DNA from: Sandaracinaceae bacterium
GTDB taxonomy: Bacteria > Myxococcota_A > Polyangia > Polyangiales > Sandaracinaceae
Direction: 5' to 3'
Assembly: GCA_019637095.1 (NCBI GenBank)
Contig: JAHBWG010000045.1
Span: 1 to 64,000 of the forward strand
Length of the DNA: 64,000 nt
Shown here: positions 22,431 through 40,687 of the stretch, in pieces
How positions within the stretch are numbered: the stretch's first letter is position 1
Layout: every line of letters starts with the position of its first letter
The notes under the pieces: model-generated
The model's database searches: none
What the model was told of the DNA's origin: nothing
The model's input: the letters and a program-made list of their open reading frames with translations, nothing else
Made by a program: the position numbers and the translations under genes

Positions 22431-23693
22431 TCAGAAGCTGCCGGACACGGTGAGCGAGCCGGGGCCGACGGCGAGGTCGAGCGCGTCGGCGTCGCCGGCG
22501 ATGCCGAGCGCGAGCGAGCCGATCGCGAGCGCGCCGAGCCCCGCCGCGAGGCCGAGGGACGTCTCCGCGAGCGCCCGGTGCCCTGCCGCGGCGTCGGCGT
22601 CACCGCCCTCTCGATCGATCGCGTCGGCGGCCTCGACGGAGACGAGCCCCATCGTCGCTTCGAAGCCCGCGAGCGCGGCGAGCGCGAGGCCGGCGCCGAT
22701 CCCGATGGGCACGTCGCGCTCGCCGAGCGCGGTGTTCGCGAAGGTGGCGATGCCGAGCCCGAGGAGCGCGCCCGCGACGCCGGAGCGGCCTGGATCGAGC
22801 ACGGCGTCTTGCGCGCCGGTCGCGGACGGTGTGGTCATCCCCACCGCGATCGCGACGCCGGCGAGCAGCGGCGTGAGCAGGATGCGCGGGATCGTCAGGC
22901 GACCCCCGCCCTCGGGATCGAGCGCGGCCTGCAGCGCGAGGTGCAGGCCCGCCCCGAGCGCGAGGCCGAGCGACGCGCCGCTCGAGAGCGCGACCTCGGC
23001 CTCGACGCGCGGTCGATCGAGGCTCGCCGTCACGCCGAAGCCGAGCGCGCCGACGCCCACGAGCAGCGCGTTGCCGGTGAGCCAGCGCCGCGCGAGACGC
23101 GGGGACGACGGCGGCGCGACCCAGCGCGGCTCGTCGCCCTCGGCGCCGGGGCTCAGCGCGAAGCGCGCGGTGTGCTCGCCCCCGGCGGTGACGACGACGG
23201 AGCCGACGCGCGGCGTGTACCCCTCGAGGCGCGCCTCGATCCGGTGCACCCCCGGACGCAAGAGCAGCACGCGCCCACCCGGCTCGACCTCGGCGGGCTC
23301 CCCGTCGACGAGCACGCGCGCGCCGCCCGGCTGCACGTCGAGCCGCACGAGGCCGAGCTCGTCGCGCGCGAGCTGCATGCGCGCGAGGAGCCGCGCGCGC
23401 TCGGCCCTCGAAGCGACGCCGAGCGCACGCCGGAAGAAGCGGTGCGCCGCCGCCTGCTCGCCGCGCGCCGACGACGCCCGCCCCATCAGCTCCCAGGCCT
23501 CCACCGAGCGGCGCGGGTCGAACGCGCGCGCGAGCCGCGCGAGCTCGAACGCGCGGCCCGGCGCCCCCTCGGCCAGCGCCTCGCGCGCGCCGGCGAGCGC
23601 CTCGGCCGCCGCCGCCGGATCGGCGCCGGTGCTCGCGGCCGCCGGCGCCGCGCCCCACGCCCCGAGCACGATCGCGAATACCCACCGAAGCAT
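22431..23693 (-). CDS. PEGA-domain exported/membrane protein
   Basis: A 420-residue protein. The signal peptide is LRWVFAIVLGAWGAAPAAAS, from the ATG at 23693. Next comes a helical repeat region of about 90 residues that resembles TPR units (AFELARLARAFDPRRSVEAWELMGRA in two pieces), then a PEGA beta domain at about 120-186 with VRLDVQPGGARVLVDGEP and VHRIEARLEGYTP. The C-terminal half has many small-residue hydrophobic segments, probably six or more membrane helices. PEGA domains are common in surface-layer and exported proteins; the role is unknown. It is divergent from the E1 genes, 149 bases away. Confidence 0.72.
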   Translation of the reverse strand: MLRWVFAIVLGAWGAAPAAASTGADPAAAAEALAGAREALAEGAPGRAFELARLARAFDPRRSVEAWELMGRASSARGEQAAAHRFFRRALGVASRAERARLLARMQLARDELGLVRLDVQPGGARVLVDGEPAEVEPGGRVLLLRPGVHRIEARLEGYTPRVGSVVVTAGGEHTARFALSPGAEGDEPRWVAPPSSPRLARRWLTGNALLVGVGALGFGVTASLDRPRVEAEVALSSGASLGLALGAGLHLALQAALDPEGGGRLTIPRILLTPLLAGVAIAVGMTTPSATGAQDAVLDPGRSGVAGALLGLGIATFANTALGERDVPIGIGAGLALAALAGFEATMGLVSVEAADAIDREGGDADAAAGHRALAETSLGLAAGLGALAIGSLALGIAGDADALDLAVGPGSLTVSGSF

Positions 23694-35521: not shown

Positions 35522-36532
35522 TCAGACGGCGCCGGTCGCGATCAGGTGCTCGCAGGTGCGCTCGATCCCCTCGGCGACCGACACGCGCGGATCGTAGCCG
35601 AGGTCGCGCCGGGCCTTGTCGATGCTGAAGTAGTGGTGCGTGCACATGTAGCGGATCGCGAAGCGCGTGAGGCCGTCTTCGGGGCTGATCGTCCCGCCGC
35701 GCAGCGTGTCGAGGCCCTCCTTGACGGCGGCGATCGCGTAGACGAGCTGGTGCGGGATCGCGGCGCGGATCGGCGGCAGGCCGAGCCGATCGACGACGCG
35801 CCGCACGAAGTCCCAGAAGGGCATCGGCTCGCCGTTGGTGATGAAATACGCCTGGCCCGCGCACGCCGCGTCGGGCGCGAGGCGCGCCTCCGCGGCGAGC
35901 AGCGCGTCGACGAGGTTGGCGACGTAGGTGTAGTCGCTCAGCCACGTGCCGCGCCCGATCTGCCAGCGCAGCCGCCCCGCCTTCGCGTGCGAGATCACCG
36001 CGGGCAGGAAGCGCCCGTCGTGCGGCCCGAAGATGACGTGCGGGCGCAGCGACACCGTCGCGACGCCGCCCTCGCCGTTCGCCGCGAGGACCTCGCGCTC
36101 CGCGGCGATCTTCGAGTCCGCGTAGGGCGCCTGCGAGATCGACGAGTAGGGGAGCGACTCGTCGCCGTTCTCGATGTCCTTGCCCTCGTAGACGACCGAG
36201 CCGCTCGAGACGTAGACGAGCTTGGGCACCTGCCCGGCCTGGCACGCGCGCATCACGTTGCGCGTGCCCTCGAGGTTCACGTTCCAGACGAAGTCCTTCT
36301 GGTTCTGCTTGGTGTGCACGACGCTCGCGTTGTGGAACACCGCGTCGGCCCCAGCGATCGCCTCGACGATCGCGGCGCCGTCGGTGATGTCCGCGCGCAC
36401 GTGCTCCACGTCGCCCCGGTGCGGCGCGCCGAGGTCGATCACGCGCACGCGATCGCCGCGCGCCACGAGCCCGTCGACGAGGTGGCGGCCCACGAACCCC
36501 GAGCCGCCGGTCACCACGCTGAGCTGTCCCAT
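35522..36532 (-). CDS. NAD(P)-dependent epimerase/3-beta-hydroxysteroid-dehydrogenase-like
   Basis: A 336-residue extended SDR enzyme. The cofactor motif is VVTGGSGFVGRHLV (6-19), followed by VFHNASVVHT, the catalytic SSGSVVYEG and YADSKIAAE (Tyr-x3-Lys), and LRPHVIFGPHDGRFLP. The GPHD and late FWDFVRRVVDRLGLP stretches resemble 3-beta-HSD and sterol-4-alpha-carboxylate dehydrogenases. Some myxobacteria make sterols, so a role in C4 demethylation is possible; a sugar-nucleotide epimerase is the alternative. The start is an ATG. The gene follows selA by 92 bases on the same strand but shows no functional link to it. Confidence 0.85.
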   Translation of the reverse strand: MGQLSVVTGGSGFVGRHLVDGLVARGDRVRVIDLGAPHRGDVEHVRADITDGAAIVEAIAGADAVFHNASVVHTKQNQKDFVWNVNLEGTRNVMRACQAGQVPKLVYVSSGSVVYEGKDIENGDESLPYSSISQAPYADSKIAAEREVLAANGEGGVATVSLRPHVIFGPHDGRFLPAVISHAKAGRLRWQIGRGTWLSDYTYVANLVDALLAAEARLAPDAACAGQAYFITNGEPMPFWDFVRRVVDRLGLPPIRAAIPHQLVYAIAAVKEGLDTLRGGTISPEDGLTRFAIRYMCTHHYFSIDKARRDLGYDPRVSVAEGIERTCEHLIATGAV

Positions 36533-36624
36533 CTCGACCTTGCCTCCTGCGCCGCGTGAACTCGGTTCACCGCGGCGCCGGTGGCGTTAGCGGGCTCGAG
36601 CGCCCGCCGCAAGGCGACACGCGC

Positions 36625-37998
36625 TCACGGGCTCGGCTCGCGCACCCGAGCGAGCGCCGCGAGCAGCGCCTCGACGAGCGCGTCCGAGGCGCCGAGCGGC
36701 GCGACGGTGCGCGCGTCCAGGAGGAGCGCTCCGTCGCGGATGCGCGCGAGCACCCGCGGCGTGCCGAGGAACAGCGCGGCGCGCAGCGCCTCCGGCGAGG
36801 GCGCACGGATCGCGAGCGCCACCGACGGCCAGCGGCGGCCGGGCGTCGAGCCGCCGCCGATCGCGCCGTCGACCTCGAGGAGCTCCGCGTCGACGTCGCG
36901 CGGCAGGCGCGCCCTCCAGCCCTCGACCGCCGCGCGCAGCGCCTCGAGCGGCGCGTGGATCATCGCGCGCGCGGGGACGTCCTGGCCGGTGAGCCAGCCG
37001 TCGAGCGTGGCCTCGAGCGCGGCCAGCGTGACCTTGTCGGCGCGCAGCGCGCGCGCGAGCGGGTGGCGCGCGAGCCGCTCCACGCTCGCACGCCGGCCGA
37101 GCGCGATGCCCGCCTGCGGGCCGCCCAGGAGCTTGTCGCCGCTGAAGCACGCGAGCTCGGCGCCGGCGGCGATCGCGTCGCCCACCACCGGCTCGTCCTC
37201 GACGGGCACGAGCGCGCCCGAGCCGAGGTCCGCGATCACCGGCGGCCCGAGCGCGGTGAGCTCCGCGATCGACGGCGACGCGACGAACCCCACCTGCCGG
37301 AAGTTCGACGCGTGCACCCAGAGGATCGCCTGCGTCCGCTCGTCGATCGCGCGCGCGTAGTCGGACGCGCGCGTGCGGTTGGTCGTGCCGACCTCGACGA
37401 GCTCGGCGCCCGACGTCTCGAGGATCTCCGGGATCCGAAAGCCGCCGCCGATCTCCACGAGCTGGCCGCGGCTCACGATCACGCGGCCACCCCGCGCGAG
37501 CGCGGCGAGCGCGAGCACGAGCGCGGCCGCGCCGTTGTTCACGGTGAGGGCGGCCTCGGCGCCGGTCAGCGCGCGCAGCCGGTCCTCCACGCCGGCGCCG
37601 CGCGCGCCGCGCCGGCCGCTCGCGCCGTCGAGCTCCACGAGCGCGTACCCGCTCGCCCGCGCCGCCGCCTCGATGGCGCGCGGGCTCCACGGCGCGCGGC
37701 CGAGGTTGGTGTGGAGCACCACGCCGGTCGCGTTGATCACCGGCTCGACGTGCGCGCGCAGGCGCTCGGCGAGCCTCGCCTCGAGCGCCTCGCGCGTGGG
37801 CACGCCCTCGGAGGCGCGCTCGCGCGCCTCCGCCACGACCGCCCGCGCGTGCGCCGCCACCCGCGCCGCCCCGTGGCGCGCCACGAGCGCGTCGGTCACG
37901 AGCCGATCGATCGCCGGGAGCGCGCGCCGCGGATCCTCGCCCACCGCATCGGGATACCACGGCACGCCACGCCGACGGCGACGATCGTCTCGCCGCAT
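36625..37998 (-). CDS. selA: L-seryl-tRNA(Sec) selenium transferase
   Basis: A 457-residue PLP enzyme that turns Ser-tRNA(Sec) into Sec-tRNA(Sec) using selenophosphate. Family marks are LPAIDRLV, the INATGVVLHTNLGRAPWS segment, LTVNNGAAALVLAL, SRGQLVEIGGGFRIP, the GTTNRTRASDY loop and the PLP lysine, Lys289 in CFSGDKLLGGPQAG. The ATG at 37998 is the conventional start, but the next residues are all Arg/Asp. A GTG at 37965 gives an N-terminus closer to other SelA proteins. The start lies in or next to a long inverted repeat. selD is directly upstream on the same strand. selB and selC are not in the window. Confidence 0.95.
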   Translation of the reverse strand: MRRDDRRRRRGVPWYPDAVGEDPRRALPAIDRLVTDALVARHGAARVAAHARAVVAEARERASEGVPTREALEARLAERLRAHVEPVINATGVVLHTNLGRAPWSPRAIEAAARASGYALVELDGASGRRGARGAGVEDRLRALTGAEAALTVNNGAAALVLALAALARGGRVIVSRGQLVEIGGGFRIPEILETSGAELVEVGTTNRTRASDYARAIDERTQAILWVHASNFRQVGFVASPSIAELTALGPPVIADLGSGALVPVEDEPVVGDAIAAGAELACFSGDKLLGGPQAGIALGRRASVERLARHPLARALRADKVTLAALEATLDGWLTGQDVPARAMIHAPLEALRAAVEGWRARLPRDVDAELLEVDGAIGGGSTPGRRWPSVALAIRAPSPEALRAALFLGTPRVLARIRDGALLLDARTVAPLGASDALVEALLAALARVREPSP

Positions 37999-38073
37999 GA
38001 CGAGATGACGAGGATCGTCCCCCTGACGCTGATGGGCGAGGGGACGATCCTCGTCATTTCGTCATTTCGTCAT
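37997..38073 (-). repeat. Long inverted repeat with octamer repeats between selD and selA
   Basis: The arms are 37997-38022 and 38040-38065, 26 bases each with one mismatch, separated by a 17-base loop. Each arm contains GACGAGGATCGTCCCC or its complement. The right arm is extended, so the minus strand reads ATGACGAA-ATGACGAA-ATGACGAG, three octamers. In the selD-selA mRNA it would form a very stable stem whose 3' arm includes the selA ATG at 37998. It may reduce selA translation or attenuate transcription, or be a small insertion. Confidence 0.8.
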
Positions 38074-38092: not shown

Positions 38093-39148
38093 TCAAGGGA
38101 CGAGGGTCAGCGAGGGCGCGCCGGCGCGCACCTCGCCGATGCGGGCGGCGTCGTGCCCCTCGTCACGGAGCTGGCGGACGAGCTCGTCGGCCGCGTCCGG
38201 CTCGAGCGAGACCAAGAGGCCGCCGGAGGTCTGCGGGTCGATCGCGAGGCGCAGCGCGGCGTCCGATGCGCGCGAGCTCAGGGCGCTCGCGACGTAGTCG
38301 AGGTTGCACCTGGCGGCGCCTCCGACGCGCGCGCTCGCCGCGCGCTCGCGGGCGCCGGGCAGGGCGGGCAGCGCGCTCGCCTCGAGCACGAGCGCCACGC
38401 CGGACGCGCGCGCGACGTGGAGCGCGTGGCCAGAGAGCCCGAAGCCGGTCACGTCGGTCGCCGCGCGCGCGCCGAGCGCGACCATGTGGTGCGCCGCGCG
38501 CGCGTTGAGCCGCAGCATCGACGCGAGCAGGGCAGCCTCTTCGTCGGCGGCGAGCTCGTCCCTGCGGTGCGCGGCGACGAGGAGCCCGGCGCCGAGCGGC
38601 TTCGTGAGGACGAGCGCGTCGCCGGGGCGGGCGCCCGCCTGCGTCACGAGCGCGCGCGCGCTCACCTCGCCGTGGACCGCGAGCCCGTACATCGGCACGG
38701 CGCCCTTGACCGTGTGCCCGCCGACGACGAGCGCGCCCGCCTCCCGCGCCTTGTCCGCGCCCCCCTGCAAGATCGCTTGCAGCACATCGAGCGGCAGCGC
38801 GTCGCTCGGGAACGCGGCGAACGCGAGCGCGAAGCGCGGCGTCCCGCCCACCGCGTACACGTCGCTCAGCGCGTTGGCGGCGGCGACCGCGCCGAACGTG
38901 TAGGGGTCGTCGACGACGGGGGTGATCACGTCGATCGTCGAGACGTGGTACGGCCCGTCGGCGCAGCTCGCCGGCCACCGCACCACCGCGGCGTCGTCGT
39001 GGCCCGTATTCGCTACCACGGCCCCTTCGGGCGCCTCCGTGGTGAGCGCGCGCAGGACCTTCACGAGGCCCTCGGGGTCGAGCTTGGCCGCTCACCCGCC
39101 GGCGTCGGTCAGCCGGGTCAGCCGGATCGTCTCGCGGTCTCGGTTCAT
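38093..39148 (-). CDS. selD: Selenophosphate synthase, selenoprotein with in-frame UGA
   Basis: SelD makes selenophosphate from selenide and ATP for selenocysteine synthesis. Reading from the ATG at 39148, codon 19 is TGA (39094-39092) within LTDAGG-Sec-AAKLDPEGL. This is exactly the site where SelD proteins carry Cys or Sec, three residues before the essential Lys (here Lys22). Full length is then 351 residues, normal for SelD. A caller that treats TGA as stop would start at the GTG at 39064 and lose the active site. Later marks are VANTGHDDAAVV, STIDVITPVVDDPYTFGAVA, ALSDVYAVGGTP, GGHTVKGAVPMYGLAVHG, VTGFGLSGHALHVA and DPQTSGGLLVS. It begins 13 bases behind an exported-protein gene. Confidence 0.93.
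39053..39073 (-). promoter_or_regulatory. Bacterial SECIS-like hairpin of selD
   Basis: On the selD mRNA, AGGGCCU (39072-39066) pairs with AGGUCCU (39060-39054) in seven pairs including one G-U, leaving the loop CGUGA. The loop starts 26 nucleotides after the UGA, inside the 16-37 range known for bacterial SECIS elements, and its second base is G, as required for SelB binding. It explains how the UGA can be read as Sec. Confidence 0.75.
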
Positions 39149-39161
39149 GCCGCGTGTTCTA

Positions 39162-40010
39162 TCACCGCGGCTGGCTGTCGTACGCCCTCGTGTGCACGCT
39201 CAGCGTGAGCGCGCCGTGGACCTCGCCCGGCTCGAGCACGTTGGTGCCGACCATCGCGCCGAGGCCGAGGTACGGCAGCACGAACACCTCGAGCGCGGCG
39301 CGCGGCTCGACGACGCCGATGACCGTCGAGGCCCACGTGCTCTCGACGCAGTCGCCGCGCCTCGTCTCGCTGCGCAGCGCGACGACCCGCATGCCCGCGT
39401 AGACCTCGAGCCGCAGCGTGACCGCGTCGATCGGGATCGCGACGCCGACGACCGCGCCGCCGCTCGGGACGAGGAGGTTCAGCGGGCGGATCGCGAGGTC
39501 GCGCTCGCGCCGCGTCGGCCCGCTGACGTCGGTCCCGAAGAGGCCGACCTCGACGCCCGCGAAGAGGTAGTCGAAGAAGCCGACGTCGAGCCGCAGGCTC
39601 AGGCCCCCGGCGATCAGGTCCGTGTCGCGCAGATCGCGGCCGCCCGTCGCGACGCCGAAGCGCTGCTCGTCGTGCACCGCCGTGCCCGCGACCTCGAGGC
39701 CCCCCACGCGCAGGTGCATCCCGCCCGGCGCGAGCGTGATCCGCAGCGGCGGCAAGCGATCGCGGCTCCACCCGTCGCCGAAGCGGCGGCAGCGCGACTC
39801 GCCGAGCGTGTCGCTCACCTCGACGCAGGCGGGCTCCGCGATCGAGGAGCCCGCGTCGCTCCCGCCGCCGTCGTAGTAGGTCGGGACGTAGTCGTTCGAG
39901 GTGTCGCTCGAGCGATCGTCGGAGCTCGAGTCGTCGCCGCACCCCGCCGACGCGGGCGCGGCCGCGGCGAGCAGCGCGAGGGCGAGCGAGCCCGCGAGCG
40001 GCGCCCTCAC
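39162..40010 (-). CDS. Exported Asp/Ser-linker protein with beta-barrel-like domain
   Basis: A 282-residue exported protein. The signal peptide is APLAGSLALALLAAAAPASAGCG; the Cys after SAG could be lipidated or simply be the mature start. A low-complexity DDSSSDDRSSDTSND linker follows, then a domain of alternating strands (LSLRLDVGFFDYLFAGVEVG, AVVGVAIPIDAVTLRLEVYAG, LGLGAMVGTNVLEPG) that resembles an outer-membrane or surface beta structure. Its ATG overlaps the stop of the upstream lipoprotein in an ATGA, so the pair is coupled. selD starts 13 bases after its stop. No family recognised. Confidence 0.7.
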   Translation of the reverse strand: MRAPLAGSLALALLAAAAPASAGCGDDSSSDDRSSDTSNDYVPTYYDGGGSDAGSSIAEPACVEVSDTLGESRCRRFGDGWSRDRLPPLRITLAPGGMHLRVGGLEVAGTAVHDEQRFGVATGGRDLRDTDLIAGGLSLRLDVGFFDYLFAGVEVGLFGTDVSGPTRRERDLAIRPLNLLVPSGGAVVGVAIPIDAVTLRLEVYAGMRVVALRSETRRGDCVESTWASTVIGVVEPRAALEVFVLPYLGLGAMVGTNVLEPGEVHGALTLSVHTRAYDSQPR

Positions 40011-40570
40011 TGCGCGCCCTCCCCCGGATCGGCGGCCGTCGTGGCGTCGGCCTCGTCGTCGACGTGCTCGTCAGAGAGCTGCTCGTCGGCGAGCTCCTCG
40101 GTCTCGTCGTCGTCCTCCTCCTCGTCCTCGTCGCGTGCGGCGCGCGTCTCGGCGCGCGAGAGGCACAGCGGCGGGAGGCCGGCCGCGTCCTCGGTGATCC
40201 CGTCGAGCGACACGCAGACCCGCGACGGAGTGACGCCGCCCGTCTCGTAGCCGATCTCCTCGACGAACGCGCCGCGCCCGTCGAGGGTCCCCGGCCGCAG
40301 CTCCTGCCGCGGATCGCGCACGGGCAGATCGACGAGCGCACCGTCCACACCTCCTCGTACGGTCACCGCGCCGAGATCCACCCTCACCGGGCCCATGCAG
40401 TGGTTGCCGACGCGATAGGCCAGGATCACGCCCGGCCGATCGAGCCACGCGACGCGGACGTCGGTGCACTCGAGCGCGACCGCCTGCGCGCTCGGCTGTG
40501 GGTCTTGGAGCAGCCACCCCCGCGGATAGGAAGGCCCGCACGCGCTCGCCATCGCCACGATCGTCGCCAT
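40007..40570 (-). CDS. Lipoprotein with acidic C-terminal tail
   Basis: A 187-residue lipoprotein. I take the ATG at 40570 because GAGGGG lies seven bases upstream; a GTG at 40585 is in frame. A short signal, ATIVAMASACG, gives the lipobox SAC. The mature domain has four Cys and an Ig-like pattern (VAWLDRPGVILAYRVGNHC, VRVDLGAVTVRGG). The last 50 residues are almost all Asp, Glu and Ala (DEDEEEDDDETEELADEQ), which suggests a metal-binding or disordered tail. It is coupled to the barrel-like gene downstream through a four-base overlap. Function unknown. Confidence 0.7.
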   Translation of the reverse strand: MATIVAMASACGPSYPRGWLLQDPQPSAQAVALECTDVRVAWLDRPGVILAYRVGNHCMGPVRVDLGAVTVRGGVDGALVDLPVRDPRQELRPGTLDGRGAFVEEIGYETGGVTPSRVCVSLDGITEDAAGLPPLCLSRAETRAARDEDEEEDDDETEELADEQLSDEHVDDEADATTAADPGEGAQ

Positions 40571-40687
40571 CGCCACACCCCTCACGACTCTGGCAGGGTG
40601 GGGTCACGCGCCGGCGCGCGCTCGGAGAAAACCTCCCGGCGGGCTCGCAAGATCACGCACGCCGCGCGGAAAACGCCGCGGCGCGGC

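What the first reader, a model, noticed from the sequence alone, without database searches (positions are those of the whole stretch)
39053..39148. selD is a selenoprotein gene: in-frame UGA with a bSECIS-like hairpin
Codon 19 of the true selD frame is TGA, in the motif GG-U-AAK where SelD proteins carry Cys or Sec. Extending the frame upstream restores the missing N-terminus and the essential Lys22. A hairpin of seven pairs with loop CGUGA starts its loop 26 nt after the UGA, fitting the known distance and G rule for bacterial SECIS. Standard annotation would truncate the gene at 39064. SelD with Sec is known in other bacteria; in this lineage it implies a working Sec system whose first product feeds itself.
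Basis: partly seen in the sequence, partly recalled or inferred. Interest (0 to 1): 0.85.

Follow-up and report, generated by a model that had tools for sequence, protein, structure and literature searches.

The report
Selenocysteine-containing SelD gene (selD)
The gene for the enzyme that activates selenium carries an internal UGA codon that is almost certainly read as selenocysteine, and the same genome has the full machinery to do so; this arrangement is real but already well known from many other bacteria.

Summary
On the minus strand, a 351-codon selD frame runs 39148-38096 (stop 38095-38093). Its codon 19 is TGA (39094-39092), in GG-U-AAK, exactly where other SelD proteins carry Cys or Sec. 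Both sides of the TGA are conserved, and GC3 is high on both sides.

The genome has the whole Sec system: selA directly downstream, selB (610 aa, with a C-terminal winged helix), and tRNA-Sec with anticodon TCA beside selB. In the order, 24 of 30 aligned SelD genes have TGA and 6 have Cys. SelD and tRNA-Sec co-occur in 37 of 116 genomes (only 4 and 1 exceptions). In named genomes 54 of 80 SelD genes have TGA and 26 Cys.

The hairpin fits the published bSECIS rule. Taken alone it is not beyond chance, because codon usage often recreates it. It is kept in nine genomes with two compensated pairs and is absent from Cys types.

Sec-SelD is the second most widespread prokaryotic selenoprotein, so this is a new member of a known kind. 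SelD is not the only selenoprotein here: a W-U-P-D-C predicted lipoprotein also has a conserved in-frame TGA.

The parts
38093..39148 (-). selD, selenide water dikinase, 351 codons with Sec at codon 19
   Evidence: translation with TGA=U; NCBIfam TIGR00476 314 bits; Pfam AIRS and AIRS_C; SelD of known structure aligned across the TGA
39092..39094 (-). in-frame TGA, predicted Sec19 (equivalent of E. coli SelD Cys17)
   Evidence: aligned with TGA in 23 further relatives and Cys in 6; TGA in 54 and Cys in 26 of 80 named genomes
39054..39072 (-). bSECIS-like hairpin, seven pairs, loop CGUGA with G-U at loop positions 2-3, loop 26 nt after the UGA
   Evidence: fold; kept in 9 genomes including this one, 95.8% of cells paired, 2 pairs with compensated changes; absent in Cys types
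36625..37998 (-). selA, L-seryl-tRNA(Sec) selenium transferase, same strand, directly downstream of selD
   Evidence: NCBIfam TIGR00474 428 bits; Pfam SelA
37997..38065 (-). 26-nt, 96% inverted repeat between selD and selA that reaches the selA start codon; its sequence is a dispersed intergenic palindrome in this genome
   Evidence: inverted repeat; fold -63 kcal/mol, z -7.1; same 18-mer in three other fetched loci of the genome

Best explanation
selD encodes a selenocysteine-containing selenophosphate synthetase. Ribosomes start at ATG 39148. At UGA codon 19, SelB bound to the downstream hairpin delivers Sec-tRNA(Sec), so translation continues to give a 351-residue enzyme with Sec19 and Lys22 in its mobile N-terminal loop. 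The enzyme makes selenophosphate from selenide and ATP; SelA, encoded next door, uses it to make Sec-tRNA. SelD therefore needs its own product to be made. Shown here: frame, homology, conservation of TGA/Cys, presence of selA, selB and tRNA-Sec. Inferred: actual Sec insertion, that this hairpin is the SECIS, and enzyme activity.
For: The homology and motif cross the TGA. The TGA column is only Sec or Cys in 30 genes of the order (24 and 6) and in 80 named genomes (54 and 26). tRNA-Sec with anticodon TCA is next to selB (SelB-wing_3), and selA is in the window. SelD and tRNA-Sec co-occur: 37 genomes with both, 4 with SelD only, 1 with tRNA only, 74 with neither, Fisher p about 1e-24 without correction for relatedness. 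The hairpin meets the published rule (G in the first two loop positions, often followed by G or U, loop 16-37 nt from the UGA; PMC13188914) and is conserved with two double changes. A second TGA-containing gene with a redox motif is in the same genome.
Against: The hairpin is not significant on its own. No protein or RNA data are available. The covariation control is modest (2 double-changed pairs; 36 of 500 shuffles reach that number).
Confidence: 0.97

Rival explanations
1. The TGA is a true stop and SelD starts at GTG 39064, giving a 323-residue protein without the Cys/Sec and Lys of the active-site loop.
For: This is what a plain ORF call gives.
Against: The 18 codons before the TGA are conserved (IRLTRLT..GG in the sister genome, RLT in nearly all) and have coding GC3 (17/18). 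The lysine conserved in all 16 aligned SelD proteins lies between the TGA and GTG 39064 and would be lost. The GTG lies in the hairpin loop.
Confidence: 0.015
2. The TGA is a sequencing error or the gene is a decaying pseudogene.
For: The genome is an assembly of 197 contigs with 4% estimated contamination.
Against: The same TGA occurs at the same column in 23 further genomes of the order and in 54 named genomes; no other stop or frameshift lies in the frame.
Confidence: 0.005
3. UGA is read through as another amino acid (for example Trp), not Sec.
For: None specific.
Against: The aligned residue is Cys in all non-TGA relatives. TGA ends this same gene. tRNA-Sec, selA and selB are present.
Confidence: 0.01

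Closest known systems
Sec-type bacterial SelD / SPS2 (TIGR00476; PMC4561486, PMC1794560, PMC13188914)
   Same: GG-U-xxK loop, two AIRS domains, bSECIS just after the UGA, gene linked to selA
   Different: Nothing essential. The putative bSECIS loop starts at 26 nt; in one group of relatives a G-U-loop hairpin sits at 32-33 nt, so the element seems to have slid by two codons.
Cys-type SelD (for example E. coli SelD; relatives L027, L032, L033, L036, L037, L044)
   Same: Same family and motif with Cys in place of Sec
   Different: Codon TGC and no bSECIS-like hairpin at the same place (3-4 of 7 pairs)

Membership tests
Sec-type SelD (selenide, water dikinase) | SelD equivalog profile above curated cut-off | tested here: met
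   TIGR00476 314.4 bits, cut-off 125
Sec-type SelD (selenide, water dikinase) | Sec or Cys plus Lys three residues on, in the N-terminal G-[UC]-x-x-K loop | tested here: met
   GG-U-AAK; G14, C/U15, A16 and K18 invariant in 16 aligned SelD proteins
Sec-type SelD (selenide, water dikinase) | In-frame UGA aligned with UGA or Cys in orthologues | tested here: met
   24 TGA and 6 Cys in the order; 54 and 26 in named genomes
bacterial Sec-decoding trait | selA, selB, selC and selD in the genome | tested here: met
   selA, selB, tRNA-Sec TCA, selD
bSECIS element | stem-loop after the UGA, small loop with G in the first two positions, loop 16-37 nt from the UGA | tested here: met
   loop CGUGA at 26 nt; rule from PMC13188914
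bSECIS element | structure conserved beyond what the encoded peptide and codon use give | tested here: inconclusive
   2 of 8 pairs with compensated changes, 95.8% paired; but 31% of synonymous recodings keep seven pairs in the window gene
bSECIS element | bound by SelB and needed for Sec insertion | not testable with these tools
   needs a binding or reporter experiment
Sec-type SelD (selenide, water dikinase) | makes selenophosphate and contains selenium | not testable with these tools
   needs 75Se labelling, mass spectrometry or an enzyme assay

The most novel reading that the evidence does not exclude
The Sec system of this lineage serves SelD itself plus a lineage-specific, secreted thioredoxin-like lipoprotein selenoprotein (W-U-x-x-C), found with UGA only in the two genomes of the family that kept Sec. 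Within SelD, the bSECIS has slid by two codons along a run of overlapping palindromes while keeping a G-U loop.
Probability: 0.5. Interest if true: 0.45.

Novelty: new member of a known kind. Interest (0 to 1): 0.22.

Why it matters
It corrects an annotation that would lose the catalytic residue of SelD, and shows that this genome decodes Sec. Sec-SelD itself is textbook: the second most widespread prokaryotic selenoprotein (PMC13188914). The useful by-product is a clear picture in one order: TGA and Cys forms of SelD side by side, SelD and tRNA-Sec present or absent together, and a candidate new selenoprotein family.

Tried and rejected
Hypothesis that SelD is the only selenoprotein (a purely self-serving Sec system): rejected. 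A W-U-P-D-C protein with in-frame TGA was found.

Other selenoprotein families in the own genome: no TGA inside AhpC/TSA, thioredoxin, DsbA, MsrA or GPx matches. The formate-dehydrogenase-like protein has Cys, RVCHSPS. There is no SelW-like protein. No full selenouridine synthase: only partial matches of 24-27 positions, below cut-off. HesB/IscA and ArsC matches flagged with TGA turned out to be ordinary C-terminal stops.

Rfam at gathering thresholds gives nothing in the window.

The first scan of named genomes with the single protein found nothing; the alignment found 577 relatives.

The structure prediction of the second selenoprotein was poor (mean pLDDT 40) and was not used.

Full report
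What is there. On the minus strand the window holds selD (39148-38093) followed by selA (37998-36625). selD read with TGA=U is 351 codons long, with TGA at codon 19 (39094-39092) in the sequence IRLTRLTDAGG-U-AAKLDPEGLVKVL. NCBIfam calls it selD, 314 bits against a cut-off of 125, and solved SelD proteins, such as 2yye (201 bits), align across the TGA with Cys there. A plain ORF call would begin at GTG 39064, which lies in the loop of the hairpin described below. GC3 is 17/18 before and 320/333 after the TGA.

Sec machinery. The genome (9.25 Mb, 197 contigs, 96% complete) has tRNA-Sec on contig C171, 75.5 bits against a gathering score of 47, with anticodon TCA. selB lies beside it on the other strand, less than 50 bases away: 610 aa, TIGR00475 above cut-off, and a SelB-wing_3 domain at the C-terminus. 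SelA is in the window. The four genes selA, selB, selC and selD are therefore all present.

Relatives. Of 116 genomes of the order, 41 have a SelD-type match (40 at 148 bits or more; one, G058, a partial match of 84 bits). Of the 30 fetched and aligned, 24 have TGA and 6 have TGC at the codon. tRNA-Sec is in 38 genomes, and 37 have both (count). Fisher p is about 1e-24; it ignores relatedness and is only a guide. In the own family, only G000 and G002 have tRNA-Sec, and these two share TGA-SelD at 61% identity; the other members have no full SelD match. In named genomes from many phyla, 54 of 80 SelD genes have TGA and 26 have Cys. No other residue occurs. The taxon is not known from the tools; a large, GC-rich member of the myxobacterial order Polyangiales, family Sandaracinaceae, is my guess from genome size and company, not a test.

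The hairpin. Arms 39072-39066 and 39060-39054, loop CGUGA, 26 nt after the UGA. The published rule is one G in the first two loop positions, often followed by G or U, with the loop 16-37 nt from the UGA (PMC13188914); it is met. Statistically the hairpin is weak alone (23% of synonymous recodings do as well; 31% keep seven pairs at this place). In nine genomes that share the register (this one included) it is kept with 95.8% of cells paired; two pairs changed on both sides, against 0.5 expected from shuffles (36 of 500 reach it), and slid versions fall to 53% or less paired. Cys-type genes keep only 3-4 of the seven pairs. In another 14 relatives there are two hairpins, with loops near 17 and 33 nt, the second with G-U in the loop in nearly all. 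Many distant SelD genes share that second form, GCGCAG-GUU-CUGCGC (read from the sequences). The window's form pairs the overlapping stretch six bases upstream. My reading (inference) is that overlapping palindromes let the bSECIS slide by two codons while keeping a G-U loop.

How it works (inferred from established knowledge of the pathway, PMC13188914 and PMC1794560). SelB with GTP and Sec-tRNA(Sec) binds the hairpin and inserts Sec at UGA 19. The mature enzyme uses Sec19 and Lys22 in its mobile loop to make selenophosphate, which SelA uses for Sec-tRNA. SelD therefore depends on its own product, a loop that PMC1794560 already discusses as a way in which Sec-SelD maintains the trait.

Is SelD alone? 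In the 2006 survey, Sec-decoders without FdhA all had Sec-SelD, and most also made selenouridine (PMC1794560). Here the FdhA-like protein has Cys and no full selenouridine synthase was found, so a purely self-serving system had to be considered. It is not so: contig C164 holds a predicted lipoprotein (lipobox LLGAC) with IPAW-U-PDC, 64-66% identical to two TGA-bearing genes of the sister genome (WUPDC and WUSAC). Cys homologues read WCPAC and WCPNC. It has no Pfam or NCBIfam family above cut-off. The sister also has a SelW-like CVMU protein.

Verdict. The finding is right in fact and interpretation, and ordinary in kind: Sec-SelD is the second most widespread prokaryotic selenoprotein (PMC13188914).

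Noticed in passing
L156 1501-2304 minus (own genome, contig C164 about 36203-37006); TGA at L156 1872: Second selenoprotein gene in the same genome: predicted lipoprotein with W-U-P-D-C, TGA conserved in two sister-genome copies (L155, L162), Cys in homologues (L163, L157); no Pfam or NCBIfam family above cut-off. Candidate new selenoprotein family.
   Followed up: partly
L149 1501-1716 minus (sister genome G002, contig C56): SelW/SelT/SelH-like gene with C-V-M-U and in-frame TGA, followed by a possible hairpin with loop AGGUU; no such gene was found in the window's own genome.
   Followed up: partly
window 37997-38065: Near-perfect 26-nt inverted repeat between selD and selA reaching the selA start codon (RNA fold -63 kcal/mol, z -7.1). 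The core GGGGACGATCCTCGTCAT also occurs in L001, L015 and L054 of the same genome, so it looks like a dispersed intergenic palindrome; it might still affect selA translation.
   Followed up: partly
window 39162-40585 minus: Two ORFs (192 and 282 aa, overlapping by four bases, no Pfam match) lie just upstream of selD on the same strand; the second ends 13 bases before the selD ATG, so selD may be translated in an operon with a putative secreted protein.
   Followed up: no
alignment A4 (14 loci between L019 and L046): Another group of SelD genes has two tandem conserved hairpins after the UGA, both with compensated changes (for example columns 16-30: GC 7, AU 6); which one SelB reads is unclear.
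   Followed up: partly
window 23502-23584 minus: ARAGORN reports a tRNA with an uncertain four-base anticodon (cgag); not examined.
   Followed up: no
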